Assembly (NCBI GenBank): GCA_033002965.1
Contig: JAURVB010014818.1
Coordinates: forward strand, 1 to 64,000
Length of the DNA: 64,000 nucleotides
Origin: Piper betle
Taxonomy: Eukaryota > Streptophyta > Magnoliopsida > Piperales > Piperaceae
Direction of reading: 5' to 3'
Below, in pieces: positions 2,300-59,457 of the stretch. A program made the translations under genes and the position numbers. How positions within the stretch are numbered: position 1 is the first letter of the stretch; each line of letters starts with the position of its first letter. The notes below the pieces were generated by a model, which saw nothing but the letters and a program-made list of their open reading frames with translations, was not told the origin of the DNA and searched no databases.

Positions 2300-4679
2300 T
2301 GTCTTCCTTTGTAAAATTTGGTTCATGGATATGGTGGTCCGTAAAAATTTCTGAAATCTTACACAGATGTTCCTTAAGAAGGCTTCTTGTCTCATGTCAC
2401 GTTTTATTGCTTTTGGACAACTAGAAAGCCTCTTAGGATTTTTCTTTCCAAAATAGGTCAGAACTGTTCTGAAATTCTAGTGACAAGGACCCAAGTTCTT
2501 GAATTTTTCTAGCCTTGTCTGGATTAAATTTAAGCTCAATAGTTTGTAGGACTAAACCCAATGTGTTAGGAGTCCACACGAGTTGTTAATGAGATTTTTA
2601 GCCCATTTTAAACCCTCGGACTAAATCCATCAAGATTAGTATGTAGTCCAGACCCTTAGATTCCAGAACCTATCACTTAGGTTAATGGGCTTAGAATCCA
2701 GTAAGCACATAGAACGAACCCATAATATAAATTAGAGTTATACCTTAGCCTATTAGGAGCAAGCTTACCAATTTTCAGATCATTCAGAATTCATTTAGAT
2801 AGTTAGAAAATTTGTCCATGTTAGACAGTCCTAGAAATTCAAGATTTAGACTTAATTAGTGTTTTGCATAATTAATCCTTAATGAAACCCCTAAGCTTTT
2901 AAAATATTAATGAAGCAATTTAATAGTAGTTAGGACATAATTAATAAGATTAATTAGGATGTTTTAATTTAATCATGTGTTGTTGCATGATTTAAGGCCT
3001 TACCTCGTGTTGCGTGGCTCTTCATGTGTTTGATTAGTTCATTTTATTTTTGGACTCACTGAGTGAGCTTGCCATGCTAGGTCAAAGAATTCTACTCATC
3101 AAATTTGTAGATTTCCCTATGTTTGTTCTCTTACTTGGCTCCCTGAGTGAGTTTACCCAAGTTTTTACAATAGGACGGGTTATTGGCGTTTTATTGGATC
3201 CTACTAATACCGGGTCATTTAGTATACTTTTCAGTAAGTTTGCTCAAACTTAAAGGATGAGATTCAATGATGGTCTTTAAACGTAAGATCCAAAAACTTA
3301 TATTTTGAAACCCTTCCTACACCTTATATATACAAATATGGAAGCTTTGTTTTCATGATGACTGTGTATGGAGATACGAAGACTGTGCTATTACTTCTCC
3401 TACCCAAAGTAGTACGATTATCTAGCGTATTACAAAGGCAACGCATTTTTAGAAATTGTGGCACCAACAACCAGTTTCTTGTCATTTGAGTACCATGGAA
3501 CGTAAAATAAGGAAAAAATTGTAAGTGTATTATTATGTGTATGAATGTAAGAATCTCCAAGCATATTATCTAGTTCATGATTACTGAGAGTGCTTAGTGC
3601 ACCTCTTGTTACATGACATGTGAGTCTTGGAAGTTTTAAGTTTTCCGTGGATGTTAAGACATCTATCTGACACTTTGATTATTTTCCTAATTTCTTATAG
3701 ACTCAATGATCTTTTGATTATTAACATTTTTCTATTATATATATGTAGGTTTGTGATCTTGGTGTTCACCAGCGTGGCGGGGCGGATCGGATGGCTCGGG
3801 AGGGAGGCAGGGATTTTAGATGTTTTTTATGTGTTTCTTATATTACATTTAATGCTCATATTATTTAATTTATGTCCCTTGGACTCATGGAATTAAATGT
3901 CATGTGATGTACTCTTAAGTGGACTTAGCGCAAATCTATGTATAAGTCTTGTGTATGGATGATGTTATACATGTACCTTTGGTTTATTGCACTGACTTTG
4001 TTTTGCAGGTTGTTGAACAAACTTTGGGGCATAAAAATAGCAAGCTCTGTAGGTTACTTATGTAATCCTCAAAGTCCTTAAATATGACAAGGAGCTAAAT
4101 CAGGTGCACTAAACTTTGCGGGTGCAATTATTTGAGTGTGTAAGAGAAATATCGATAGGAGGAGCAAACATTTCTTACCCTTCGAAGAGTCCACGTGAAG
4201 GCCAGTTGTTAGGGTGAAACCTTAACAATTGATGATTCCCTGTGTAGTTTACTTCTTTGTGTTGAAAGTTATTGGAATTGGTAACTATGACCTTTATAAA
4301 CTAATAAGGTATGTAAGCACAACTCAAAACTAAATAGTAAGAATACGGGTCATGCATTGGTCTTAAGCACCACTTTTAGTTGTAGCGGGGGTGCGCATCT
4401 TCTACATAATATTCGGAGTGCTCATTTGTAGTAAGAATACGAGTCCCTCTCCTGTATACTAGGAATGTCATGTTGGAAGCCTAGTGTTTAAGCCTTCCTT
4501 TTAGCTAATGATATGCAGACACGTTTACATATAATGTTCTACCCCGTTCTATATCTTAAGCCCCATTGAGTGTTAAGATATACTTCCACGTATTAATCTA
4601 ATTTTAGTATGTCTAACGAATAGTTCATCAAGTTTACCATCATGATTCAGTCTAGTCTAGAGCCAAATTGGGTGTTACA
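2300..4679 (+). mobile_element. LTR-family repeat (probable solo LTR), right end GGGTGTTACA
   Basis: The stretch ends at 4679 in TTGGGTGTTACA, a typical plant LTR 3' terminus. It runs collinear with the split copy at about 19.3-20.8 kb plus 29.05-29.45 kb: both contain a GAGTGAGCTTRCC block, a CCCACTAA/CCTACTAATACCGGG block, a GCGGRCGGATCGGAT block, and near the end GTCTAACGAATAGTTC followed by CATGATT. The left boundary is not resolved; 2300 is approximate. No gag or pol coding is present, so a solo LTR is the simplest reading. Confidence 0.55.
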
Positions 4680-20838: not shown

Positions 20839-22355
20839 TGTCACAGGGGTCAGTTTAGGGGATAAATTTTTTCGCCCAAACTGCCACTGTGCGGCGTGTT
20901 TCCCTCCCTGGAAACACCAGCCAACACCACCTCCGCACCCCAACGTGCTGTGGTGCACAGCGGCCTCGGACCGCACGCCTGCAAGTATCGCACGCACCCA
21001 GTCCCAGTACCGCGCCCAGCTACCAACGCCTGCGTACCGTAACCAAGTTACCAGCCCCTGTACCGAACACACACACCGATCACCAAGTCGCAAGTGATTA
21101 CACGCCCCACGTACCGAGTACCCTGCTCGGTGCCCCTAGACCACGGAATCACTGGTCTAGACCACGGTGCACAAACATGATGGATACATCACACCAATTA
21201 CAGGATAAATCTCAACCTCTATTCTTACAACGTGAATACAGGATATACACAGGTAATCCCTCTAGACTACCCGCCAGTCGTGGACATGCAAACCCCACGA
21301 CCATGCCTCTCGATTCTCACTCGACAGGACTTCACCCAACCCTCGGTTCACCGCGCAGGGTTGCCGAACAACAGGTGTGTGAGCCTTGACCCTAAAGGCG
21401 GACGACGACTACCCCCGGTAATCCCCCTTAGTGTTCCAGACCCTCCTCGGCCTGACTGCAGTAACCCCAAGGCGTCCCCTTGCCCGACCAAGTTTCACTC
21501 CCCCACTGAGATCACTCACACACTCAACTCTCTTTTGTTGTTCTGATTTCTACACAAGGATGGCATCTCCTTATATAGACCTTCCGGACTAGTGGGCACC
21601 GCGTCCCCAGCTTGCATCCTCACCGTCCAATCCACGATCAACGGTCCTCATGCTCCAAGCCTTGTCATCACTCAACCCCTGGGATTCCAGCAAAATTACC
21701 GGAAAGCCTACCCCTGGGTGTGGCGCAAAAGACTGATCGCATTCTTGGTTCGACCCAACACCGAACCCCTCCTGGGTGTGTTGTGGTCGCCTTATCGAAC
21801 CAGCGACCCCAGTACTGAACCCTGGTCTGCCCGTTCCACAGCACCCATGCGCGTGCACGATAACCCCTGCAGCTCCTTGGCTCGGTCACCCGCACACCTG
21901 CGCACCCGTGACTACCGCCCATTTGCACGATAGCGCACGGCCCTGGTGCCTGGCTCGCCTGGTCATGATGCCTGGTCGCTCGCATCCCACGCATCCGGAA
22001 CCCGCACTTCTACCCGCCATGCTGCTCGGTAGAATGCCCCGGCTGTGCCTGACCTTGCACGCGCCTGGAACCTGCACCACACTCGGTACCAGGTAGCGGC
22101 CTGCTCGGTACTCCTTACCGACCAATTGTCCACCACAGCCTGCTATCGGTACTGCACGGTAGCTCGCCCACACAGCAACTCGCCCGATAGACCACATGCG
22201 CCAGTCAGACCTTGGACTTGCCCACATCACGGATAAATGCTCGGTAGGTTGTTCAACACTCGGATAGCACCGGCCACCCGACTTGGACGCGGGAATGCTA
22301 GGGACAACCGCCAAACCCTAGCTCTCGACCGTCCCATGAGCTAAACCCCGTAACA
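20839..22355 (-). repeat. 3' LTR of the gypsy-like element
   Basis: 1517 bp, uninterrupted. It is nearly identical by eye to the right LTR, with scattered substitutions. Open frames on both strands (for example 20889-21389) also occur in the other LTR and are not genes. Confidence 0.9.
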
Positions 22356-25886: not shown

Positions 25887-26889
25887 TGTCACAGGGGTCA
25901 GTTTAGGGGATAAATTTTTTCGCCCAAACTGCCACTGTGCGGCGTGTTTCCCTCCCTGGAAACACCAGCCAACACCACCTCCGCACCCCAACATGCTGTG
26001 GTGCACAACGGCCTCGGACCGCACGCCTGCAAGTATCGCACGTGCCCAGTCCCAGTACCGCGCCCAGCTACCAACGCCTGCGTACCGTAACCAAGTTACC
26101 AGCCCCTGTACCGAACACACACACCGATCACCAAGTCGCAAGTGATTACATGCCCCACGTACCGAGTACCCTGCTCGGTGCCCCTAGACCACGGAATCAC
26201 TGGTCTAGACCACGGTGCACAAACATGACGGATACATCACACCAATTACAGGATAAATCCCAACCTCTATTCTTACAACGTGAATATAGGATATACACAG
26301 GTAATCCCTCTAGACTACCTGCCGGTCGTGGAGATGCAAACCCCACGACCGTGCCTCTCGACCCTCACTCGACAGGACTTCACCCAACCCTCGGTTCACC
26401 GCGCAGGGTTGCCGAACAACAGGTGTGTGAGCCTTGACCCTAAAGGCGGACGACGACTACCCCGGTAATCCCCCTTGGTGTTCCAGACCCTCCTCGGCCT
26501 GACTGCAGTAACCCTGTAACGACCCGCCATTTTTCACGATATTGTGGGCCTAACTGGCTAGTTGTTACTCAAAAGTAAGTAATTATGTCAAACATTTTTT
26601 ATAAATAATAACATACATAAACATCCCACAGTCTTGGACCGTTTCCCAGCAGCCACACTTATTTCTCAATTTAAAAGAAAAGGAGTCCTCATATTTATTT
26701 TGCTCCATACTCTGGATGTCAATCACCTAATCTTGTATCTGCACACCTGCGGAGGCAATTCCGCATTAGTGATTACAACACTAAGTAGTATAATAGATAA
26801 AACAAAACAAGTACATTCCACTATTTCCTTATGTTTATTTTAATATGCGGTGGAGCGATTCCGCTATACTCCAAAACAATGCGGAGGAG

Positions 26890-32458: not shown

Positions 32459-34200
32459 AATACACAAATTACACAAAATACATCTACATGCATCATAACA
32501 AGGTTGAGGGCACCAACCCATATCATAATACAACACATACCCGTAATTCTTGATAAAACATGAATCTCAAATAAATAGTAAGTCCGTCAAAATACATAGG
32601 TCGAATACAAGACAAATCATACACACGGTACCATCCCTTGTCAAGAGTCTCTTGATCTGTCCACCTACACTAGTCATTGACATGCGTACTCACCTACATA
32701 GATGTAAGAAATCTCTCAGTAATCAACCAAGTTTGATTACTAACCTGAAAATAATTACTGATAAAGAATATTGACAAATGAATATTTTAATACCCACAAA
32801 AAATCATAAAACTTTGAAATCTAACTCAAGACAGTAAGCTGAGGCCAACACAGATGAACATCATACAATAAACGTTGGAGCAAACTCGATGGCTTCATAC
32901 TTACATACATACATATATGTATTTACTCTCTCACATCCTCTATATAACACCTGTCACAGCATTCATGTTGCATGGAACAGTTAGGATAGTTTCACAATTT
33001 ATTGAACACTGCATTCATAGTACCTTAAGTTACACTACTTTAGGGTGTAAATGAGTAATAGTGTAACTCATATAATCTTTATCACTCATTCTCTTATTCA
33101 TGAAATTTGAAAAACCATGCATACTTATATAATAGGATTATGGAGAGACTTATAATAGGCCTATGGAGGAACTTATATAACAAATTTTTTGAGCACATCC
33201 TTCGAAAACCAATAAGAGATCTCATCCTTATAACTTTATTAGACTGGATAAAACTCAACTAAATGGCCCAATGTCCGAGGGATCTGATAAAATACCACTA
33301 ACGTTATCCTACACATAAATTATGATTAAACTCGACACTCAATGAGCCAAACAAAGATGAAACAGAAGAGTCTTACGGAGATGAATGAGTCGAGCTCCTC
33401 CTCATAACTCGTCAAGCTCATTCCACTTAACTTAGGAAGGAATGAAACCTAAATCAGCCTTGAATCACATCAGCACGCAAAAGAAGGCAAGGCAACAACA
33501 CATACATGGCACAAAAAACATAATTGATTTTCTTATTTTCTTAATGAAGTGTTAATCCTCATTAGGTAACCTTAATTAGGGTTTGGGGTTATATGTATAC
33601 TTAGTGAAAGTCTCATACTTAGGATTTTTATCAAATGAGCTTAACTGGATAATTCTTTTGACATGCCAAATGGCGTCCAAATTAGCTAAAATTTAGACAA
33701 GTGGGTTTTTACACTCTAGGGATTTGGAACAAAACTTACCAAGTACTAGATCATGGGCCAACATGGTAAAAAGGCCAATTAAGGTTACGTTAAGGTGTTA
33801 TGAACAGTGTTCTTATGCCACACACTAATTTTGCTAAGTATCATTCATAGGCTTGGAGATTCTAAATAGGCCTAAGTGAATGGGTAAAGTTAGTCAACAC
33901 CATGAGATTGAATCATGTAAAATTTCAAGTCCAAACTCTAAGAATTTGGGCCTAAGTGGACTTAGAAATAGAAGATATTTGTTAGGCATTTCAGGAGTTG
34001 GCTAGACCTAATAGGCTTATAAAAATCATTAAGTAAGTTCTACTGAGCCAGTGGCTCTCGAATTGTAAGGAGATATTAGGACAAACCCTAAGGTCTGGAT
34101 GAAATGTCATGTAGTTTCACTGCCAAATGGTTGGGGTAAGGGAATTTGTAACTATAGCTACGGAGCTAGGGCTTTATCCTGCATTCTTATACACCCTAAA
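31719..34200 (-). mobile_element. Minus-strand LTR-family repeat
   Basis: Read on the minus strand it parallels the 2.3-4.7 kb repeat: a GATCC/GGGCCATTTAGTTGAGTTT block and a GATGAGATCTCTTATT block in the expected order, ending in GGGTGTTAT near 31719. An (AAT)n microsatellite lies at about 32398-32455. The 5' end is uncertain. No coding is seen. Confidence 0.5.
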
Positions 34201-35427
34201 AACCCAATTAATTAACCACTTAAAATGATTTTTAAATATTAACAAAATTTACCTATTTTCAGTAAACACTCAGAGAGTCCAAACATAATTTTCACAGATT
34301 TTATTTACATATTTTAATAGGTTTAGTACAGAACAAAATCTCAAAGCATGACATACCACATCAACAAAACAGCAAATACACAACGTATTTAGGGTTTTGT
34401 TCATGCCCTTACTAACATTATTTTAACATGGTATTTTAACATAAGGTAGATAACGTCCTAAGCAATAATCATGCAAAAGATGACATTTAAATACATCCTA
34501 CAACATAATGCAAAAATTGCAAAAAGAGACGGTCAGGTCATTGAGGCCATGAAACCGGCCCCCTTTTGCCAAGTTTGGCACCTATTTAAGCTCATACATG
34601 TAAATTCAGACAAAATAATTTAAACAAAACTTGTATATTTAACTTTTATGAAGCTTACAAGACAAGAATCATACAGATATACAACCTATCACATGAGATA
34701 TGATATTTCTACCAAAAATGTACAAAACAGTGAGAGTAGTAAAAAATGCATAACTATTTGATACAACTCCAAATGTGATTAAAGCAAGTTCTAAATACTC
34801 CAACGGCATACCACAAAAATCAAGACTTAACAAAAACACAACCACACAAACATAATAATCACAAAAAAAGGTAAAGCTGAGACCTTTACCTCAACCCGTT
34901 CCTAGGGGAGGTTTTTTGGGACTTTCTATCCTAAGACCTTCAACCTTAAGAGCTTGACTAAGATTAGAGAAGCCTAGAAGGGTCTGGGAAGGGCTGGAGA
35001 GGAAGAAGGAAGGTAAGCGAGCAAGGGAAAGTTGGAGGAAGAAGGATCTAAAGGGTGAAATGCTTGGAAATATCTACTATTTATAGGTAGAAAAGTGGGT
35101 TAGTGCAAGCATACTTGGAGGGCACCTTTGCGCTGGGTTCTACCGAGATAGACTATCAAAAACCAAAAAATTGGGTAAGCAAGTCAGATTTGTGTGAACC
35201 GAACTTCATGCAAGCACAGGCCTAGGCGCAAGGGCAACGGCGAGGCACCTTTGTGCTAGCTAAAAGAGCAGGATTATCAAATTTAGGCACAAGGATGTTG
35301 TGCTAGTGCTTTTATGCCCTTACTTAAAACCCTAACCCTAAAATGTGCTAGTGCAATGGCTCTACAGTGGAGTTTCTCGCACTTAGGATTTCCACCCTAA
35401 GGTAGATAGGGTGACCTAGGGAATTAT
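34201..35427. other. Intergenic, repeat-like, no genes
   Basis: AT-rich sequence, possibly the rest of the adjacent LTR element. No frame of interest and no resolved ends. Confidence 0.35.
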
Positions 35428-35435
35428 GCCACGGG

Positions 35436-36968
35436 TAGGGGTGGGCATCGGTCGGATGGATATCAGACAAACTATTGTTTGCCTCTGTCCGAAATTTCAT
35501 CGGACAAAACTTGTCCAACTAAGTCATTATTGAAGTTGTCCATCAGGCCCAAACAGTATTTGTGGATAGTCCAAAATCAAAATCTACCCTAACGAATACT
35601 ATTCACAGAGAGCCTTCTTCTCCGCTGCCGCCACCTGCGACCACCCTCAGCCACTTTGAGTGCTCCCTAAAAACCCCCTCTGCACCACCCGCAGAACCCC
35701 TCCACCACCCTACATATTGTGTGAGTGCCCCTCCTTGCCGCCGGCCAGGTCCATCACTGCCATGGTCAAGCGCTACCCCACCGTCTTCGAGCTATGCCAA
35801 CCCACCGCCTCTAACCTCCTCTCCGTCCGCCTCTCGCCGGAGGCGCTCTGCCTCGCCGCTGAGGAGGCCGCACTCCGGTTCCTCCTCGCCAGGAAGCTGT
35901 AGCGGCTGCTGCTGCTCTCGTCCCACCGCCACCTGTTGCTGGCCAAGCTGGCCCACTTGGGGCCCGACCTCGGCCTGCCGGCCAACTTCCGGTCCTGCCT
36001 CTGCAACAACCACCCCAGCCACTTCCGCACTGTCGAAACTTCCTACGGCTGGGCCTAGAGCTCGTCGGCGCCGACACCTCCCTTGCCGTCCCACTCCCCC
36101 TGCAGCCTTCACCGTCGGCATCACCGGCGACCGCCCTGATCATCGATCGGCCGCCAAAGTTCTGAACTTTGAAGCTCAGGAAGGGGCTAAACCTAAAAAG
36201 CAAGCACCGGGAGAAGAGGATGCCGGTGGATCACCTGACTCATTTCAGGAAGGAGGTTGGATTGCCAAACAGGCTGAGAGGGATGCTGGTGAGGTACCTG
36301 AAGATGTTGTACGTGAGCTTGAAGGGGATGAGGGACACTGTGTTTCTGGTGGAAGGGTATGATGAGAAGGGGAGGCTGACAGAAAAAGATGAATCTCTGT
36401 AGTTGAAAGAGAGGCTGTTGGAGCTGGTGAGAGAAGGGAAGAAGATGAGGAAAGATAGGAGGAATGGTGTTTGTCTCCGTGATGATGATGATGGTGACAG
36501 CGATGCAGCGGAGACTGATGATGATGAGGAGGAGGAAGATGATGGGTTTGGAGACTCGTTTGTTGTTGGTGTTGATGGGAAGGATTGGGAGGAGCTTGGT
36601 GAGCTTGGAGAGGAGGAAGGGTGGATTGAGTATGGTTTGTCGGTGAATATTGGATGGCCAAAGCTTCTCTTGTCAATGGTGATGGCAATGTGACGGAGTC
36701 ATGGTATAAACTTAATATCAATTTTATGTATAAATTTAATTAATTTTATTATATATTATATTTTTAAAATTTTCATAAAACATAATATTATTGAAAGCCA
36801 TTATGTTATTAATATAAAATATCGGAGACTCGGTCGGTTATTCAGTCGAACAAATAAATATCCACGTTTGGTTTGTTTTAATTTGATTGAATTTGGTCGG
36901 TTAAATTTAATCAGATATGCTTCGGATTTGGGTCAGACTCGGTAATTCAAATGTTCGCGCCGCTCCTA
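35436..36968. mobile_element. hAT-like non-autonomous element carrying a PORR gene copy
   Basis: Flanked by GCCACGGG (35428-35435) and GCCACAGG (36969-36976), an 8-bp duplication with one mismatch; 8 bp is the hAT length. The inner tips are TAGGGGTGGGCAT at the left and, reading inward from the right, TAGGAGCGGCGCG, a short imperfect inverted repeat of hAT type (TAGGRGYGG). The 1533-bp interior has no transposase and is filled mainly by a broken plant PORR-domain gene copy. The ends are seen in the sequence; classification as hAT is inference. Confidence 0.65.
35640..36693 (+). pseudogene. PORR-domain (organelle RNA-binding) protein pseudogene
   Basis: Three phases read in turn match a PORR protein of the WTF1 family, which binds organellar group II introns during splicing. 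First phase: KRYPTVFEL, SVRLSPEAL, LLARKL, then (after TAG at about 35900) HRHLLLAKLAHLGPDLGLPAN and HPSHFRTVETSYGWA. Last phase: RKGLNLKSKHREKR, then directly VDHLTHFRKEVGLPNRLRG, YVSLKGMRDTVFLVEGYDEKG and LKERLLELVREGKKMR, ending in an acidic Asp/Glu tail. Lesions: N-terminal part missing, TAG at about 35900, a stop after TSYGWA, frame change near 36.1 kb, roughly 40 residues missing between the RKGLNLK and VDHLTHF blocks, and TAG at 36400-36402. It lies inside the hAT-like element. Confidence 0.75.
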
Positions 36969-36976
36969 GCCACAGG

Positions 36977-38206
36977 TGCCGCAAGGATCGTCCAAAAGGG
37001 TCTAAACAAACAACAAACACCCTAAACTCGCGAAAGACACAATCCTAAAGCTAATTAGACTCTACTCAAATAAAAATAAAAAACAAGAGTCGGGACGACG
37101 TGGTGCCCTACCAGATAGCTTGAACCACCAGGGGAGACTAAAGTCGTGGCTTACACATATATACCATATAAATGTATATGGTAAAAAGAGACCGGCGTAG
37201 AACTTGATATAGGTTGCAACCAAATCGAAATTAAAACCAAAAGGCCCAAGTTTTACAACCGAGGGAGCTCTTCCATCGATTGGAATGCATCATGACTTAG
37301 ATTGAAGGAAAGGGGAGGAAATATGGTTAAATATGACGTGGACTTGTTTGTCTCGAGAGACGGATTTCCTTTTGTACACTTTGGTATCGCTATTACTGTT
37401 AGGTGAAATTTTGTCTCCCATGGGGTAAATATGAAACCCACTTGTAATCAGTTCCAGTTCTTTTATCCACTAATACAATCCCAATGTATTCTTACGCACT
37501 CTTATGCATTCCCTTGAAACTTTCTCAAACAATTTCCAATTTGCAATTCTATTCAACTTTAGAAATTTTATTTACGGTTATAATTCCAATTTAGTCAATA
37601 GAATCGGTATGAAATAACCTTATTTCATATAAAGAATGTTATCCACTAATATAATCATCTCTTGTATACTATATTATATACACCTCATAGGTTAAAAATA
37701 TCTACATATATTCGACTCTAGTTAATATATTCATTAATATCTTTCTTATGAATTCAATATTGTCTAATGAGAATCTGATCATATGCATTGCATATAAGGT
37801 TTGTTATTCACTAGAACCGTTATATCTTCTCCACTCGTAAGCATTCCCCTAAATTCATATATAGAATAACACATTCCACTTGTATTCAACGTTAGGAATG
37901 TTATTCATTGTTGTAGTTGCAAATTGTTCAGTATAATATATTACTATATATTTGTGTAAACTTTCACGTTGCAAAAACATTTGAAGCCGCCAACAATGTG
38001 AAAAATGTCATCCTGAAGTAGCATGAGAACAACATTTAAAATTTGATCCACAAGATGATCCTTATTTAGCGTGTTTCAAAAATTACATGTAGTTAGCAAT
38101 AAAGGGCTGTTATACAGTGTAATAATAATCTCTTATCCACTATTAGCCGAACCTCTTAATTGCAACACAGATCTGCTTGTAATCATCACTAGGTCTTCCA
38201 TCCATT
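36977..38206. other. Intergenic AT-rich region
   Basis: No recognisable genes. Repeated short phrases on CACTTGTAAT/ATTCC/GTTATTCA themes suggest decayed repeats. No boundaries are defined. Confidence 0.35.
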
Positions 38207-40865
38207 TGTAACATCTCAAAATATTCAATATTACCTAATAAAAAATACTGATTATATATTCTTGATCTCAAAATTGTCTAAAGGTTTTTCCAAGTCAGTT
38301 GACGGAGCATATGTTCTCTATTTCCTCGGCAAACATAAGAGTTTGCACACCAAATATATATATGACGATAAAACTTAAAACATTGTCAAAATATTTTTCT
38401 TTTCTCACACAATCACATCATAACCATTTTTATATTGTTGCGCCGGGTCTCAACCCCATTTGATCATCCTATGCAATTCTACTCATAATAACTACTATTC
38501 ATAATTCATTTTACAGTTTCACGCAACAATTCCTACTATAACACGTTATAGCATTTAATTCATAATTATTCATAACAGTTCATCACACCACAATTTCCAT
38601 TCCATTCGGTAGGTGTATGTATGCATGGTACATCATTACTCCTCTGCAATCCCGATAGCACTCAATCATTCAGATTCTCACCTAAATATATAATACAAAA
38701 ACATCAGTAACGAGTATTACTAGTCAGAAATAACTAATAATCAAACTAACACAGGAAAACTAATTCTCCTATTAAATAAAATCATTCATATACTTCTTCA
38801 TAAAATCTCTCATAATGGGGCTAATTAGGAGTCGTTGGCATCAGCTCGACAGCATCTCATTCTGACTCATCTCATGCCTCGATAAATTTTAAAACTATCT
38901 CATGCACGAGAAAAATAATTTTCCTTCAACCCTCTACATCTTTTGTATCACTCCTAGCCCTGAGCACAAAGGTCAAGTACTCTCATCCATGTGCCTTCAG
39001 TAACCTTTAAAATCACAAGTCTAAATATGTCCTACATTGCAGTATCCATAATCTTCCATACTTCTTCAGGTTTGAGGAACTCAAAAGTAGAGTTGTCAGG
39101 ATCCCTCGGGAATAGAATGGTTTGCTCATCAATTTAGAGCCCGTTTTGACTAGCACGTGCTCGTTCACGGTTCACGTGAGTCAACTTTTCCTTATCTCAC
39201 ACCTCACTGGAAAACACCAATAAAACTATATGTACATAAGTCTGGGTAGAGATTTTAATAGTGTAGGCCCTAAGGCATCATGATGTGGATTTGAGTTTTC
39301 AAACACAAACTCAAAGGATCTCGTCCTTTCGGGTTATTAATCAGGCAATTCATACGACTAAATGGCCCATGTGGAGTGGGATGCGATAAATCTACCACTC
39401 GACATGTCTGCATACCTATTAAAATAAATCACGATAAAGTGAAGGAGTCAAACCAAAAGTGGGTCCTAAATGGACCTATTAGAAGCTCCAATCGTGTTCA
39501 TGTGCCTAGGCGGTGAACACTTACTCTGTACGTACACACATCAAAACTAAAAGTTAACGCCTACTATGATGCATTCACGCATCCTATATCATACTCACAT
39601 GAAGCCATTCATCACATCAAGTCACATCATGATCAACTACATTACAATGCAATTAATTAGATACTTATACTTAATTTACCTAATTATGTCATTAACATTT
39701 ATTCAACACAATTCAAATCATACAAATTCATTTTGTCTATAATCAAAATAATTTACTAGGTCAGTCAAATCTTAGCATGTTGTGTAATTATTATCAATTT
39801 AATTAATTAGGTTGGAGCCAATTATACCTTGTGTCGTAGGCAATCGGCAACAACTAGGATTTATCGCACGGTTAGAGACTCGAATTTGGCACCTTGTGGC
39901 ATCCAAACTTCGATCAAGTTTAGCCGGATAAATGTGGCAAAAACCCGGCAATTTTTGCTATATTTCAACAAATCCATTTTTTCGGTGATTTTCCTACGAC
40001 TTTTCCGGCAAGGCGATTGGGGCTATGGGGTCGGCACCGACTCAATGAGCTCAATCTGACTATGGTGGTAGTGAGGGTGGCAATGGAGGCGATCATCACC
40101 GATGGCAGTGGTGAGTCAGTCAGGGTCAATCGACTTGTCTAATCGGCCTTTGGCCGGCCTCAGCGGTAGCACTTGGTGTGGGGAAAGCTTCCTGGACTGA
40201 AGGGGAGGGCATCGGCGGTGGCGGATCAGTGCAAGGGCGCTGCGTCAGGGCATCGTGGAGGTCAGGCGGTGGCCAGGAAGTAGGGCAATGGCTCGGCAAA
40301 GGCCTAGCAAAGGTCGGCGGAGTCGATCGGCGCCAGCACGATGGCCAAAGGAAGCATCAGCGACCTGAATCGGGGCAGCAATCAAGGAAGAGGAGAAAGG
40401 TATCATGGAGGGTTTTGGGTAGCAATTTCGTGAATAAAAGTTGACTCGACTCCGATTTAAGTCAAAAATAATAACTAACTCCTAATAAATTCAAAAAAAA
40501 TCTAAGAAAATGTGAAAATACCATAAAATATAATATACTCCATAACATCAAAATGACATTCTCTATAACTAATAATCAACCCAAACTGCTATATAACGCA
40601 TCCTAATATGTTATTCAACCTAAAATTAATTTTACGATCAAATATATAAAAAAATAACTACATATTATCATATACTATGATAACTCATTTCTTATCATTT
40701 TTCTATCATTATCATGATATATTAAGGTATACTTGACTATTATCGCTCATAACGTACGACTGACTTCGGCTAGCACGCGGGTCATGAAATTAAGTTGACC
40801 CAAACTAACGGTTGAACCAATTGGTTCACTGCTATAAAACTCTAATTTTAGTAAGGGGTTTTAAA
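38207..40865 (-). mobile_element. Minus-strand copy of the 14-19 kb LTR family
   Basis: Read on the minus strand from 40865 it starts TTTAAAACCCCTTAC (TG tip changed to TT). It then follows the 13755 LTR block by block: a CCAATTGGTT block, the CGTACGTTATGA block, a GC-rich stretch, a GGAGCTTCTAATAGGTCC block, a GGTGAGAA block, ending near 38207 with TTTTGAGATGTTACA. A target duplication is not clear at these ends. The open frame at 40178-40444 lies in the GC-rich part and is not a gene. Confidence 0.6.
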
Positions 40866-48448: not shown

Positions 48449-51135
48449 TCAACCAGATATAGCACGACTGACAGTAAACTGAGCCCAATCAGCAGATTCT
48501 TTAATTAAATGATCATCTGATGACAGACATTCATTCAAGAAATCTTTGCTTGCTACTGACTGACTAATCAAAGGACCTGCATTAGCACCCAATGTATCTG
48601 CCAGATCTCCAAGCACGCTGACAGCAGTTTTCATCACAGATTCATCCCTAAGAAGCCAAAAACCAAATTAGAAGTAGAAAGAGAAGCATAAGTAAGACAA
48701 ATAAATAGAAAAAGGAGGGTCTCAGTTAAAGAGAGCACAAACTCACATATCCTTCTCCATGTATAAACTGTCCAAGAACTGAAGAATGTGTGGTGCATAT
48801 GGCATAAGCAATTGAGTTTTCGGTGAGTTCTTGAAACCTTGGAATATACCTGAATAAGCTTCAAGAATTCCATTCCTCAAAAGGTTAGTATATTCAAGCA
48901 TCTCATCATCCGCACCCGACGTATGCGTAGACAGCTCAGCTGCACCTTGGAGCATTGGCATAGCATACATCAGGTACTTTTCAAAATTCTCACCGATAGC
49001 CAAGGCAATATCACCAAAGCATGAAAATATTGGCGGCTTAACAGATCGATGCAATTGATTACTTGAGAGGTCCTTCAGGAGCTGAGTCATGATGCCATCA
49101 CAATAGGGGAGTGTCTTTTCCTCCAAAGCACGACACAAATCACCAACCACCCCTACAGTGATAGCACAGACCTGATATTCCTCAAAATTCTGTAAGCCCA
49201 TTTCCAAGTACGGATAGAACTCATTCATGTACTTCGCAAAATCTGGACCAGTAGCGTATGCAAGAGCTCCAATTGCAAGCATGGCTTCCTCGTGTACAGT
49301 AGCACTTCTGCATGCAAATACCCTCAGGAATAGGCTCATCATCTGGTCTGCAAACTGCATGAACGTATATTTTGTCGCTTCAGATGTGCCTAGCTTTTGT
49401 ATGATCACTTGAAGGCAGCCACAAAGAAGACCATGCAACTCTGTCTGCTGCTTTTGGGTCTCAATCGTCTGGTTAAGCTCCATCATGATGACTGGCACTA
49501 ATTGCAGCACTGTTGGAGCTGTCTCTTCTGTAGAACACCTCACCACCTCGTTTAAAGTTTCGTAGGCAGATGTTCTCAAACGTGACTCTCCAGCATCCTC
49601 CCTATGTGTGACGGCAAGAAGAGCCTGAATAATGTCTTGAAAGAAAGGGGAAAGGGAGACGTTGAGCTTACGTCTTCGTATCCTTGAGCAAGGAAATAAA
49701 GGGCTCCACAGGCCTTTTCCGCAACATTTGGAACATCTTTCATGCTTTGTAGCAAAACAGTAAGTATCTGTTGACAATTGGCTGGGGTGATAATTGCTGT
49801 TTCGACAGTGGAACCATGAAGAAACTCAAATATTCGTCCCAAGGTCCACGCAGTTGTGTCCTTCACATGGTTGCTCGGGTCCTTTGTCAGTGCAGAAAGC
49901 ATAAAGTTCAAAGCAACGTTAACAACAGGCGTCAATTTGTCAGGTGATGGGCCTTCCAATATGGATCCAAATGCATAAGTTGCTGCCTCTCTGCACCTCC
50001 AATCAGGTTTTGTGATATTTTCTTCTATGAAAGGCATGACAAGAGGAACAATATCATCGCCAACAGTTCGAGCTACCAGACCTAAACAAGTACCCCCAGC
50101 CATTGCAAGATTCCATGCACCGTCATCTTGGTCCTGATCTTCTTCTTGCTTAAGAAGTGTCTCCAACAAAAGAGGGACCAACGCAGGTAGAGCCTGCTTG
50201 ATAAAATAAAAGCATGGGATTGCCGAATCTCCACTGAATTCACCACCATATTCTTCTAAAATATCGATTTCCTCATCACAAATTGAGCTCCAAAACTCAA
50301 TTGCTTGCAGTGCCACAGGCTCCTCGTCCTCCTTCACAGCCTTTGAGGTAATGCTGAAAATATCACTAATGTAGGAAGCGAGTTTCTCATAGTAGGTAGA
50401 AGATATCGAAACCAAGCATTCAAATGCTGCCTGCCTTATCTTCAAATCTGGACATATAGTTGCCTCGCATACTACCCTCATGATGTAATCGCGCTCCATA
50501 TCATTTGAAAAATTTGCCTGGGCAAACCCCAATGCATTGTTCAAAGCCCTGGTAGCAGCGAGCCTCACATCTGTATTAGACTCTGAGGAGCTCATGCTTT
50601 GAACCACAGCAGTGAGAATTTTGTTGACCTCACCCTGAACCACGGCATCAGGGGAAACCTCTTCACACAAATAGCCAAGGGTCTCAAGTGTGGCCTGCTT
50701 CACAAATGGTGGAAGTTGCTGAATGTTCGACAATAAAGAAGTTATCAGCTCTGGCCATTGGCTATGAGGCAACTCTATGCCAGCAATCTTTGCGATAACT
50801 TGAGATGCTGTTGACCGAGCATCCAGAACCGGAGACAAAAGAGTCTGTAACAAGCACGCCTTAACCTGGTTCTTCACAGAAACATCCAACGCCAACCACC
50901 TCTGTACGAGTTCAAACTTTCTGTGTTGCTCCTTGGCATCTAGGGTGTTTTTTAATATCAAACCAGCCAACTTACGACTTTCCACCGGTTTCTCATTATT
51001 TGCTAATTCACCGGATAAGGCCAAAAAGAAACTTGGCAAATCTTGTTCCTGAAATTGCTTCAATGTTTCCTCGGCATGCTTTCGCACATTCCCATCAACT
51101 GCTTGTGCATTCAACAAAATTTGGGTAACCTCCAT
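48449..51135 (-). pseudogene. Importin subunit beta-1 copy 1, one-base frameshift
   Basis: Same structure as copy 2: exon 51135-48747, intron with GT-AG, last exon 48647-48449. Importin beta carries cargo through the nuclear pore via an alpha-solenoid of HEAT repeats. The copy reads identically to copy 2 from MEVTQILLNAQ until EDVSSTSP, then lacks one G of a GGGG run (plus-strand 49654-49656). The frame changes and stops at 49576-49578, giving 519 residues instead of 862. After the lesion the original frame (from about 49650 on) is open to the normal end, with GLLCGCLQVIIQKLG and YCDGIMTQLLKDLSSNQLHR intact. Only this one lesion is seen, so loss is recent or the base is an assembly error. The main exon is 2389 nt against 2390 in copy 2. 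Confidence 0.85.
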
Positions 51136-51942
51136 TCCCACTGGTTTTCCAGGCAAAAAAAAAAAAAATCAGCTCCCGCTTATATAGAATCCACATAATG
51201 GCCTCTAGCTACCCATCAAATAGCCAATCAGTAGCATTCATGGAATCTAATTACCAGTCAGCGCCTCAAATCATAATAAAAGTAGAAAAAACTAGAATCG
51301 TCTTGATTTTCCTCCACCAATGTGAAAGTCAAATCAATCAGTACTAGATCAATTAACAGTTATCGCTCAAATCACAATACAATGAATAAAAAATGAGTTA
51401 TCGTAATTTTTTACCACCAATGGGAAAGGCAATCAATCAGTATTTTATTTTTTAGATCAATTACAAGACAATGCTTAAACTACAGTAAAAAGAGAATAAA
51501 AAAGAACTGTCATAATTTTTCCCAACCACTCGTAAGCAATTGCTACTATTCATTCAACTCAATAACTAGAATTGTATGCCACCCTCAACCATCCCGATTC
51601 CCAAATCATGTAATAAATACTAACAATTCCAAACAATTAAGGGAAGAGCTAAAAAATCATCGAAAAAATTATACAGAGCCAAATCAAGTCGGAGAAGAAC
51701 CAAGCAACTTCTGATCAGCTCGATTGGCGAATAAACAAACACGGACTGTCAATATCACTCAATCAACACTTGCATGAGCTCGTTCACAGCTAAATAAACA
51801 AAGATCTAGCAAGATCAGCAGCCCAAACAGCTACAAATTCACAAAAAGAAATAATAAACGCTATAACAAGAAAAAGCGGCTATCTAGCTCGTGGGATCTA
51901 CTCTAATGGAAATTCGCGGAAATCGAATCCAAAAAATCTCAC
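51136..51942 (-). other. 5' UTR intron of importin copy 1, altered acceptor
   Basis: Donor at 51942 (CAACAG then GTGAGATTT on the minus strand). In copy 2 the acceptor is TTTTGCAG before GAAAACCAG. Here that site reads TTTTGCCTGGAAAACCAG, so the original AG is gone; the next AG (in ACCAG, 9 bases before the ATG) could serve. Intron sequence differs widely from copy 2. Confidence 0.55.
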
Positions 51943-55170: not shown

Positions 55171-57858
55171 TCAACCAGATATAGCACGACTGACAGTAAA
55201 CTGAGCCCAATCAGCAGATTCTTTAATTAAATGATCATCTGATGACAGACATTCATTCAAGAAATCTTTGCTTGCTACTGACTGACTAATCAAAGGACCT
55301 GCGTTAGCACCCAATGTATCTGCCAGATCTCCAAGCACGCTGACAGCAGTTTTCATCACAGATTCATCCCTGAGAAGCCAAAAACCAAATTAGAAGTAGA
55401 AAGAGAAGCGTAAGGAAGACGAATAAATAGAAAAAGGAGGGTCTCAGCTAAAGAGAGCACAAACTCACATATCCTTCTCCATGTATAAACTGTCCAAGAA
55501 CTGAAGAATGTGTGGTGCATATGGCATAAGCAATTGAGTCTTCGGTGAGTTCTTGAAACCTTGGAATATACCTGAATAAGCTTCAAGAATTCCATTCCTC
55601 AAAAGGTTAGTATATTCAAGCATCTCATCATCTGCACCCGACGTACGCGTAGACAGCTCAGCTGCACCTTGGAGCATTGGCATGGCATACATCAAGTACT
55701 TTTCAAAATTCTCACCGACAGCCAAGGCAATATCACCAAAGCATGAAAATATTGGCGGCTTAACAGATCGATGCAATTGATTACTTGAGAGGTCCTTCAG
55801 GAGCTGAGTCATGATGCCATCACAATAGGGGAGTGTCTTTTCCTCCAAAGCACGACACAAATCACCAACCACCCCTACAGTGATAGCACAGACCTGATAT
55901 TCCTCAAAATTCTGTAAGCCCATTTCCAAGTACGGATAGAACTCATTCATGTACTTCGCAAAATCTGGACCAGTAGCATATGCAAGAGCTCCAATTGCAA
56001 GCATGGCTTCCTCGTGTACAGTAGCACTTCTGCATGCAAATACCCTCAGGAATAGGCTCATCATCTGGTCTGCAAACTGCATGAACGTATATTTTGTCGC
56101 TTCAGATGTGCCTAGCTTTTGTATGATCACTTGAAGGCAGCCACAAAGAAGACCATGCAACTCTGTCTGCTGCTTTTGGGTCTCAATCGTCTGGTTAAGC
56201 TCCATCATGATGACTGGCACTAATTGCAGCACTGTTGGAGCTGTCTCTTCTGTAGAACACCTCACCACCTCGTTTAAAGTTTCGTAGGCAGATGTTCTCA
56301 AACGTGACTCTCCAGCATCCTCCCTATGTGTGACGGCAAGAAGAGCCTGAATAATGTCTTGAAAGAAAGGGGAAAGGGGAGACGTTGAGCTTACGTCTTC
56401 GTATCCTTGAGCAAGGAAATAAAGGGCTCCACAGGCCTTTTCCGCAACATTTGGAACATCTTTCATGCTTTGTAGCAAAACAGTAAGTATCTGTTGACAA
56501 TTGGCTGGGGTGATAATTGCTGTTTCGACAGTGGAACCATGAAGAAACTCAAATATTCGTCCCAAGGTCCATGCAGTTGTGTCCTTCACATGGTTGCTCG
56601 GGTCCTTTGTCAGTGCAGAAAGCATAAAGTTCAAAGCTATGTTAACAACAGGCATCAATTTGTCAGGTGATGGGCCTTCCAATATAGATCCAAATGCATA
56701 AGTTGCTGCCTCTCTGCACCTCCAATCAGATTTTGTGATATTTTCTTCTATGAAAGGCATGACAAGAGGAACAATATCATCGCCAACAGTTCGAGCTACC
56801 AGACCTAAACAAGTACCCCCAGCCATTGCAAGATTCCATGCACCGTCATCTTGGTCCTGATCTTCTTCTTGCTTAAGAAGTGTCTCCAACAAAAGAGGGA
56901 CCAACGCAGGTAGAGCCTGCTTGATAAAATAAAAGCATGGGATCGCCGAATCTCCACTGAATTCACCACCATATTCTTCTAAAATATCGATTTCCTCATC
57001 ACAAATTGAGCTCCAAAACTCAATTGCTTGCAGTGCCACAGGCTCCTCGTCCTCCTTTACAGCCTTTGAGGTAATGTTGAAAATGTCACCGATGTAGGAA
57101 GCGAGTTTCTCATAGTAGGTAGAAGATATCGAAACCAAGCATTCAAATGCTGCCTGCCTTATCTTCAACTCTGGACATATAGTTGCCTCGCATACTACCC
57201 TCATGATGTAATCGCGCTCCACATCATTTGAGAAATTTGCCTGGGCAAACCCCAATGCATTGTTCAAAGACCTGGTAGCAGCAAGCCTCACATCTGTATT
57301 AAACTCTGAGGAGCTCATGCTTTGAACCACAGCAGTGAGAATTTTGTTGACCTCACCCTGAACCACGGCATCAGGGGAAACCTCTTCACACAAATAGCCA
57401 AGGGTCTCAAGTGTGGCCTGCTTCACAAATGGTGGAAGTTGCTGAATGTTCGACAATAAAGAAGTTATCAGCTCTGGCCATTGGCTATGAGGCAACTCTA
57501 TGCCAGCAATCTTTGCGATAACTTGAGATGCTGTTGACCGAGCATCCAGAACCGGAGACAAAAGAGTCTGTAACAAGCACGCCTTAACCTGGTTCTTCAC
57601 AGAAACATCCAACGCCAACCACCTCTGTACGAGTTCAAACTTTCTGTGTTGCTCCTTGGCATCTAGGGTGTTTTTTAATATCAAACCAGCCAACTTACGA
57701 CTTTCCACCGGTTTCTCATTATTTGCTAATTCACCGGATAAGGCCAAAAAGAAACTTGGCAAATCTTGTTCCTGAAATTGCTTCAATGTTTCCTCGGCAT
57801 GCTTTCGCACATTCCCATCAACTGCTTGTGCATTCAACAAAATTTGGGTAACCTCCAT
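55171..57858 (-). CDS. KPNB1: Importin subunit beta-1 copy 2 (intact)
   Basis: CDS exons 57858-55469 and 55369-55171 with a short GT-AG intron. The junction AT|G GAT GAA keeps frame (MEKD-MDESVMK), giving 862 residues; Arabidopsis KPNB1 is about 870. It starts MEVTQILLNAQAVDGNVRKHAEETLKQF, the importin-beta N-terminal domain, and continues as HEAT repeats throughout, with the acidic KQEEDQDQDDGAW loop, CREAATYAFGSILEGPSPDKL, DTTAWTLGRIFE, HEEAMLAIGALAYATGP, and the C-terminal ADTLGANAGPLISQSVASKDFLNECLSS. Importin beta binds importin alpha, nucleoporins and Ran-GTP to import nuclear-localised proteins. MEV is chosen because the 5' intron acceptor lies 15 bases upstream, leaving no other ATG. 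It lies downstream of no operon; copy 1 sits about 4 kb away in the same orientation. Confidence 0.95.
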
Positions 57859-57873
57859 TCCCACTGGTTTTCC

Positions 57874-59457
57874 TGCAAAATGAACATCAGTTCCAGCTTA
57901 CATGAATACTTCATCACATACACTAAGACAATGATGCAAAATTTAGTACCAATCAAAAAGTCAAACAGTACCAGTCATTTAACTCAATTAGCAGCCAAAG
58001 CTCAAATCACAATAAAATGGGAATAAACAAAAATTGTCATAATTTTTCTCCACCAAAAGAGTAGGCAATCAATACCAATCAATCAACAGCCACTGCTCAA
58101 ATTACAAAAACAGAAAAGAAAGTAAATTGAATGTCCCTTACTCATCGTAGTTCCTGAATCACTAAAACCCAATAGCCCCCCCCCCCTCAAAAACAACGGA
58201 ATACTTCCAGAGAAATAAGAGAGGAACTAGCAAATACGTAAAGAATCAATCAGGACCAAATAATGTACAATAAAAATCAAGTAAGTTCTTATCCTCAACT
58301 ATTAAATACTAGCTGAAGCATCTTCAAAGCTAAATAACAAAGGATCTAGCAAAAATACCAGCATAGCAAAGACAAATTCATTAAAGAAAAGAAAGAATGA
58401 ATGAAAGAAAGAAAGGAAATCAACCATAGTTCACCTGACTTCGTCAAAATCAAATCAAAATGAATATCACCTGCTGCCACCATCCTTATCTGCTGCTACC
58501 ACTGGCGGTAGGGTGTCACTGAATGTTATTTTTGGGTTGTTAAAATGGGTCCTTCAGCTTCAAGCCAAAATGACTAGCCATTTTGGAAGGCCTAGGGACC
58601 CACATACATACAAGACACCACGCATCTCATATAGCAATGTGAGCTTATTCTATCAAGGGTTAGGAAAGCGAATGTGGTAGAGAAGGGAGAGAAGGGCATA
58701 GGATTTTATAGTTTATATTGACAAAATGGTCTAATCCAAAAATTTATCATACAAAATTCACCACATACACTTATGCAAAGATACAAATTCTTTGCCACCA
58801 ATCGTAAACACCATCAGCACCAGTCATCGAACCCAATAAACAGTCAATGATCAAATTACAGTACAAAGAAGAAACTAGACTTGTCAAAATTTTCTGCACC
58901 AATCAAAAAGACAATCATTACCATTAAACTCAATAACCAGTCTATGCCGGAACAACAGTTAAATGAAGACCCTAGAACTGCCATAATTTTTCTCCACTAA
59001 TCGAAAAGGCAATCAGTATCATTCAATCAATTCAACAGCCAGTCAACGCTCAAATTACGGTAACAATAGAGAGGAACTAGAATTGTGCGCCACTCTCAAT
59101 CATCCTAGTTCCTCAATTACTAAAATCCAATAAACACTTAATTCTTAAAATACAACAACAATTGCAAACAAATAAAAGAATAACTAACAAAATTGCAAAA
59201 CATCAAACAGAAACAAATTAATTCCAAAAGAAACCAACCGGGCTCTTATCCACTCGATCGGAAATAAATGAATAAATAAATAAATAACAAATACAGACCT
59301 GTCAATATCACTTAATCAACACTTGCACGAGCACGTCCAAAGCTAAACAACCGGAGATCTATCAAGATCAGCAGCACCGCACATGCAATTCACAAAAAAA
59401 TCAATAAAAATAAAAATCAATCGTGGTTCGCCAGCATCGAATCGGAAAAAATCTCAC
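57874..59457 (-). other. 5' UTR intron of importin copy 2, containing an internal duplication
   Basis: The donor is at 59457 (CAG then GTGAGATTTTTT) and the acceptor TTTTGCAG ends at 57874. A second block at about 58465-58520 (CACCTGCTGCCACCAT..., plus strand) resembles the leader exon and its donor at 59450-59500. Intron text on both sides repeats: CTCAAATTAC, the GAGAGGAACTAG block, CATCGTAGTTCCT / CATCCTAGTTCCT, and ACTAAAA-CCAATA. So part of the leader and intron has been duplicated in tandem. Confidence 0.6.

What the first reader, a model, noticed from the sequence alone, without database searches (positions are those of the whole stretch)
35428..36976. hAT-like element with 8-bp duplication that carries a broken PORR gene copy
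The 8-mers GCCACGGG and GCCACAGG flank TAGGGGTGG... and ...CCGCTCCTA tips. The interior is mostly a PORR-domain gene copy with stops, a frame change and an internal loss of about 40 residues. This looks like gene capture (transduplication) by a DNA transposon, which is well known for Pack-MULEs but less often shown for hAT elements.
Basis: partly seen in the sequence, partly recalled or inferred. Interest (0 to 1): 0.75.

Follow-up and report, generated by a model that had tools for sequence, protein, structure and literature searches.

The report
hAT transposon carrying captured PORR gene
A plant jumping-gene fragment of the hAT type once picked up most of a gene for a PORR protein (a family of organelle RNA-binding proteins) and spread decaying copies of it; gene capture by hAT elements is already known, but this is a clear, multi-copy example.

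Summary
Window 35436-36968 is a 1,533-bp non-autonomous element with hAT-type ends; 35728-36704 is a broken copy of a PORR gene (PF11955, E 8.3e-23 and 2.2e-21). The intact, intron-free parent is on contig C320. Five PORR-carrying copies on five contigs share the left junction; 4 of 5 share the right junction, exactly after the last sense codon, followed by a 12-bp filler that resembles the element's own sequence. That points to one capture followed by spread. PORR-free relatives with the same ends are numerous; 11 of 14 insertions counted as independent have 8-bp duplications with at most one mismatch (0 of 182 control pairs), and a 4.2-kb relative has decayed hAT transposase pieces. Other members carry serpin-like and DUF1681 pieces. 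The flanking repeat is uninterrupted in 15 of 15 fetched paralogs. Whether the window's own 8-mers are a true duplication stays open. Capture by hAT is in print: a new member of a known kind.

The parts
35428..35435 (.). left flanking 8-mer GCCACGGG, putative target-site duplication
   Evidence: 7 of 8 match to 36969-36976; not settled by paralogous empty sites
35436..36968 (+). non-autonomous hAT-family element, 1,533 bp
   Evidence: ends shared with relatives; family has 8-bp duplications and a member with hAT transposase pieces
35436..35727 (+). element 5' arm: tip TAGGGGTGGGCATCGGTCGG, subterminal part and GC-rich stretch
   Evidence: 74% to PORR-free member L021 over 35436-35709; 39 other places scored for 35436-35630
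35728..36704 (+). captured PORR gene copy (parent L012 3475-4591) with stops, frame changes and losses of 12 and 135 bases
   Evidence: Pfam PF11955; 86% and 90% to the parent
36209..36210 (+). place of the 135-base loss (parent 3970-4104); GGAG is shared by both sides
   Evidence: L009, L011 and L013 keep most of this stretch, L010 has a different large loss
36705..36716 (+). 12-bp junction filler TATAAACTTAAT, near-copy (1 mismatch) of element sequence at 36729-36740
   Evidence: at the junction with 0-1 mismatch in 4 of 4 PORR copies that keep it; a single place in each of 7 PORR-free stretches tested (4 whole elements, 3 partial)
36717..36968 (+). element 3' arm with tip CCGCTCCTA (decayed form of ...CGCCCACCCCTA)
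   Evidence: about 80% to 25 further places without PORR among those scored; alignment
36969..36976 (.). right flanking 8-mer GCCACAGG

Best explanation
A non-autonomous member of a hAT DNA transposon family in this plant took about 1.1 kb of an intron-free PORR gene (relatives are named WTF1/RPD1), from codon 86 or so to the last sense codon, into its interior, next to its GC-rich 5' arm. The 12-bp filler that resembles the element's own sequence at the right junction suggests template switching during gap repair or replication (inferred). Transposase supplied by autonomous relatives then moved the composite element, giving at least five copies (one origin shown by shared junctions; movement by transposase inferred from the family's ends and duplications). 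The copies decayed with no sign of coding constraint; the window copy also lost 135 bases. It is very unlikely to make a working PORR protein.
For: Intact parent at C320, open frame from L012 3218 with a stop at 4592-4594. Five copies on five contigs with the left junction at parent 3473-3479; four with the right junction at 4592 and the filler. 32 of 1,067 comparable sites where the available copies agree against the parent (some may have changed on the parent's side). PORR-free members with the same ends. 8-bp duplications with at most one mismatch in 11 of 14 insertions counted as independent, 0 of 182 control pairs. hAT domains in L042, which has the same ends and a perfect duplication, and in L022, which shares the 3' end. 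Flank uninterrupted in 15 of 15 fetched paralogs. Differences from the parent fall on the three codon positions 28, 28 and 38 of 321 each in the window copy.
Against: At the window site 10 of 15 uninterrupted paralogs align better if both 8-mers are kept, 4 if one is removed, 1 ties, so the local duplication may be coincidental. None of the other four PORR copies has both ends clean: L009 has a decayed 5' tip, for L011 and L013 no 3' tip was found, L010 has a decayed 5' tip. The parent has no intron, so an RNA route cannot be excluded. No relative species could be examined.
Confidence: 0.93

Rival explanations
1. An ordinary PORR pseudogene (segmental or processed copy) that merely lies between chance or unrelated hAT-like ends.
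For: The window copy alone is degraded, and its 8-mers could be older target sequence.
Against: Four further contigs have the same PORR piece joined to element arms at the same places (left in 4 of 4, right in 3 of 4); the parent's first 85 codons and 3' flank are not found in window 34000-39000; PORR-free elements with both arms exist.
Confidence: 0.03
2. Several independent captures of the same gene by the same family rather than one capture followed by spread.
For: A second, high-copy repeat family (L014-L018) holds a piece of the same gene, apparently taken separately, with a left edge close to that of the hAT copies, so the gene may be prone to capture at that place.
Against: The right junction with its 12-bp filler is the same in 4 of 5 copies, and shared differences from the parent exist.
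Confidence: 0.04
3. Capture went through a PORR transcript (reverse-transcribed) rather than genomic DNA.
For: The parent is intron-free in this genome, and the capture ends exactly at the last sense codon.
Against: Neither 3' untranslated sequence nor a poly-A run follows the PORR piece in the copies; two maize captures in print, Ds2-22 and Ds-l4-354, contain introns (PMC3260210, passages).
Confidence: 0.1

Closest known systems
Pack-hAT elements among Pack-TYPE transposons of maize and rice (Gisby and Catoni 2022, PMC8903248; passages seen)
   Same: Non-autonomous hAT ends with 8-nt duplications around captured coding DNA; clusters of copies.
   Different: Different plant and genes; there found by a TIR-based genome scan, here by locus anatomy with the parent gene and the junction filler resolved.
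Hatvine-6 of grapevine (Benjak et al. 2008, PMC2528002; passages and the transduplication section seen)
   Same: One hAT family, constant ends, interiors that differ and match genes.
   Different: Hatvine-6 elements share a transposase coding sequence; the window element has no room for one.
Maize Ds2 and Ds-l4 elements with gene fragments (Du et al. 2011, PMC3260210; passages seen)
   Same: Non-autonomous hAT elements, Ds-l4 with a modal length of about 1 kb, with filler DNA from genes.
   Different: There 2 Ds2 and 9 Ds-l4 elements carry gene pieces; here one capture is found in five copies with shared junctions.
Pack-TIRs of animals, multicopy Pack-hAT-N8_XT (Tan et al. 2021, PMC8277862; passages seen)
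   Same: hAT capture of a gene piece, spread to several places; template switching proposed.
   Different: Animal, 291-bp piece of a 5' UTR; here about 1.1 kb of coding sequence in a plant.

Membership tests
hAT superfamily | 8-bp target-site duplication (family level) | tested here: met
   11 of 14 insertions counted as independent with at most 1 mismatch, 0 of 182 control pairs; misses L038 (2), L044 (2), L046 (4 mismatches)
hAT superfamily | 8-bp target-site duplication at the window copy itself | tested here: inconclusive
   7 of 8 match; 10 of 15 uninterrupted paralogs align better with both 8-mers kept, 4 with one, 1 tie
hAT superfamily | short terminal inverted repeats of hAT type | tested here: met
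   Window tips TAGGGGTGG / CCGCTCCTA, 7 of 9 complementary; exact TAGGGGTGG / CCACCCCTA in several relatives, e.g. L020, L040, L041, L042. That TAGGG-type tips are usual for plant hAT is recalled.
hAT superfamily | transposase with BED finger and C-terminal hAT dimerisation region in a relative with the same ends | tested here: met
   L042: zf-BED E 4.1e-4 (20.7 bits, cut-off 20.6), Dimer_Tnp_hAT E 3.2e-15; a 155-aa middle piece and a 110-aa piece gave no Pfam hit. L022: Dimer_Tnp_hAT E 2e-15, 3' end only
Pack-TYPE (transduplicating) element | host gene fragment between the element ends, parent elsewhere | tested here: met
Pack-TYPE (transduplicating) element | no transposase of its own | tested here: met
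   Apart from PORR only about 0.55 kb of arms remain, too little for a transposase; the arms themselves were not scanned with Pfam
Pack-TYPE (transduplicating) element | captured piece spread by transposition to several places | tested here: inconclusive
   Five contigs, shared junctions show spread of one capture; clean duplications at the other four PORR copies were not found
Pack-TYPE (transduplicating) element | absence from the orthologous site in a related species | not testable with these tools
   No relatives held for this genome; only paralogous uninterrupted sites were tested

The most novel reading that the evidence does not exclude
This hAT family is a serial gene capturer: a GC-rich stretch in its 5' arm acts as a landing place for GC-rich exons by template switching, so that one family holds PORR, serpin-like and DUF1681 (NECAP-like) pieces and perhaps more, with filler copied from the element as the scar.
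Probability: 0.35. Interest if true: 0.5.

Novelty: new member of a known kind. Interest (0 to 1): 0.36.

Why it matters
A multi-copy gene capture by a hAT element with the parent, both junctions and an element-like filler all visible is useful for working out how cut-and-paste transposons acquire genes. The family also holds pieces of other genes under one set of ends, which would let capture sites be compared between events.

Tried and rejected
Plain pseudogene or retro-copy: rejected because the PORR piece has the same borders inside the same arms on other contigs. A shared origin of the PORR piece in L014-L018 with the hAT copies: judged unlikely. At 12 sites where the hAT copies agree against the parent, three of the L014 family (L014, L016, L018) share the hAT state at 4 (3477, 3489, 3722, 3837), keep the parent state at 2, have a third state at 3 and a gap at 3; the flanks and the right edge differ too. 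An LTR-retrotransposon name for the flanking repeat: not supported, as no repeat pair was seen in the window. Naming the host plant: importin and PORR best hits point only to some angiosperm. LPEAT-like identity of the piece in L046: recalled only; Pfam and a protein search gave nothing. A count of PORR copies with the parent as query did not complete (first, last), so five is a lower bound. No paper in the held library has words starting 'PORR domain', 'transposon' and 'pseudogene' together. Correction made on checking: the internal loss is 135 bases, not the 131 that I had first read from BLAST borders; and of the fetched L014-type copies 3 of 5, not 4 as in my note, begin after a TA run.

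Full report
What was checked. The window lies on contig C10897 of a 527-Mb plant assembly of 11,211 contigs. The element without its flanking 8-mers is 35436-36968, 1,533 bp. Its interior has PORR (PF11955) in two pieces, profile positions 50-150 and 250-325. The best protein match is an unnamed 439-aa protein, 69% identical over 99% of the read-through query.

Parent and copies. Searching the own genome with the element (40 of 2,495 candidates scored, so counts are lower bounds) gave the parent on C320 and four further PORR copies with element arms on C4613, C10128, C7781 and C8410. The C320 locus (L012) has one open frame from 3218, matches the 439-aa protein at 92% in a single frame and has its stop at 4592-4594; no intron is seen. 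Against this parent, the PORR piece starts at 3475 (window), 3478 (L009), 3473 (L010), 3479 (L011) and 3478 (L013), and ends at 4592 in the window, L009, L010 and L011; L013 stops at 4552 and no 3' arm was found there. The last parental sense codon is followed in the four by TATAAACTTAAT or a one-mismatch form. PORR-free relatives have this 12-mer at a single place in 7 of 7 stretches tested (4 whole elements, 3 partial). In the window a second, one-mismatch form starts 24 bases further on; L010 also shows two, L009 and L011 only the one at the junction. The copies differ from each other by 0.107-0.140 and from the parent by 0.096-0.111 substitutions per site (Kimura). At 32 of 1,067 sites with four or more copies readable the copies agree and the parent differs; I cannot say how many of these changed on the parent's side. 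The window's 135-base loss (parent 3970-4104) is not shared by L009, L011 or L013, which keep most of that stretch, and L010 has another large loss. Differences from the parent by codon position: window 28/28/38, L009 38/38/33, L010 20/24/31, L011 31/26/36, L013 39/32/35. Best reading: one capture, spread, decay without coding constraint.

The element family. The 3' arm alone matches 25 places at about 80% among those scored, and the 5' arm 35436-35630 matches 39 other places (40 of 1,106 candidates scored). In 35 loci examined, both ends were placed by script in 20, and in two more (L025, L026) by the tip search. For the duplication test I dropped L026, L045, L029, L035 and L037, whose flanks look like those of an insertion already counted (L029 and L037 have 3 mismatches; their group is represented by L032 with 1), and L010, L024 and L047, whose ends were unsure. 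Of the remaining 14, 11 have an 8-bp duplication with at most one mismatch; the misses are L038 (2), L044 (2) and L046 (4). Mismatched pairs of flanks under the same offset search give 0 of 182. The end positions had been chosen with the duplication in the score, but no offset was used in any of the 14. L042 is 4,248 bp long with perfect tips and a perfect duplication and holds decayed pieces of a transposase: zf-BED, just above its cut-off, and Dimer_Tnp_hAT; two other pieces gave no Pfam hit. L022, which shares the 3' end, has Dimer_Tnp_hAT too. So the family is hAT.

Other passengers. L020 (1,844 bp) has a serpin-like piece (PDB 3le2, Serpin-ZX, E 4e-14; Pfam E 3.7e-4, 20.3 bits, below its cut-off of 27). 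L041 and L044 have a DUF1681 piece (E 2.7e-19 and 3e-7; that this is NECAP is recalled); L045 is near-identical to L044 by its frames. Parents of these were not found, as searches did not complete, so 'captured' is inferred for them. L046 looks to me like an LPEAT piece, from memory only; two searches found nothing.

Empty site. Both flanks are parts of a dispersed repeat: 40 further matches for the right flank and 39 for the left. I fetched stretches of 15 of these places, and in 15 of 15 the best alignment to the joined flanks runs across the site without the element (L049 over 555 columns at 70%; the rest; L051, L053 and L055 align weakly, scores 19-23). This shows the element to be an insertion into an older repeat. 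The paralogs do not confirm the window's duplication: 10 of 15 score higher when both 8-mers stay (among them the two highest, L060 and L049), 4 when one is removed (L057, L059, L061, L063), 1 ties (L051). The repeat itself has an imperfect CA.GGG/CACAGG repetition at this spot and comes in longer and shorter forms, so either history is possible. I lean to a true duplication, since the family regularly makes one; this is judgement.

Comparison with print. Gene fragments in hAT elements are described for maize Ds (PMC3260210, passages), grapevine Hatvine-6 (PMC2528002, passages and one section), maize and rice Pack-hAT (PMC8903248, passages) and animals (PMC8277862, passages). The last reports that multicopy Pack-TIRs are rare in animals and proposes fork stalling and template switching followed by transposition; the 12-bp filler here fits such a route. 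The finding is thus a well-resolved new member of a known kind.

Noticed in passing
L014-L018 (contigs C9927, C6817, C9245, C8662, C10479); also C2441, C8667, C365, C9356 by match only: A second repeat family, about 99% identical between fetched copies and starting near GAGGCAAGGTTTGGTGTGCTGCAG, carries what looks like a separately captured piece of the same PORR gene (parent about 3472-3927); 3 of 5 fetched copies begin directly after a TA run.
   Followed up: partly
L020; L041, L044, L045; L046: Members of the same hAT family carry other gene-like pieces: serpin-like, DUF1681 (NECAP-like), and one that looks LPEAT-like from memory.
   Followed up: partly
L042 (contig C9897), element of 4,248 bp: Decayed autonomous-type relative with perfect tips and duplication, BED finger and hAT dimerisation pieces.
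   Followed up: yes
L010 (contig C10128): This PORR copy still has an open stretch of 221 codons over the C-terminal part, while an inner part is lost and other sequence lies in its 3' arm.
   Followed up: no
window 48743-51168 and 55465-57897, minus strand: Tandem importin-beta-like copies: one has an open frame of 810 codons, the other is split in two overlapping frames.
   Followed up: no
window 20859-21389 and 25907-26437: Nearly identical 176-codon open stretches about 5 kb apart, with gag-like frames on the other strand between them (by eye); may be the repeat ends of a retrotransposon.
   Followed up: no
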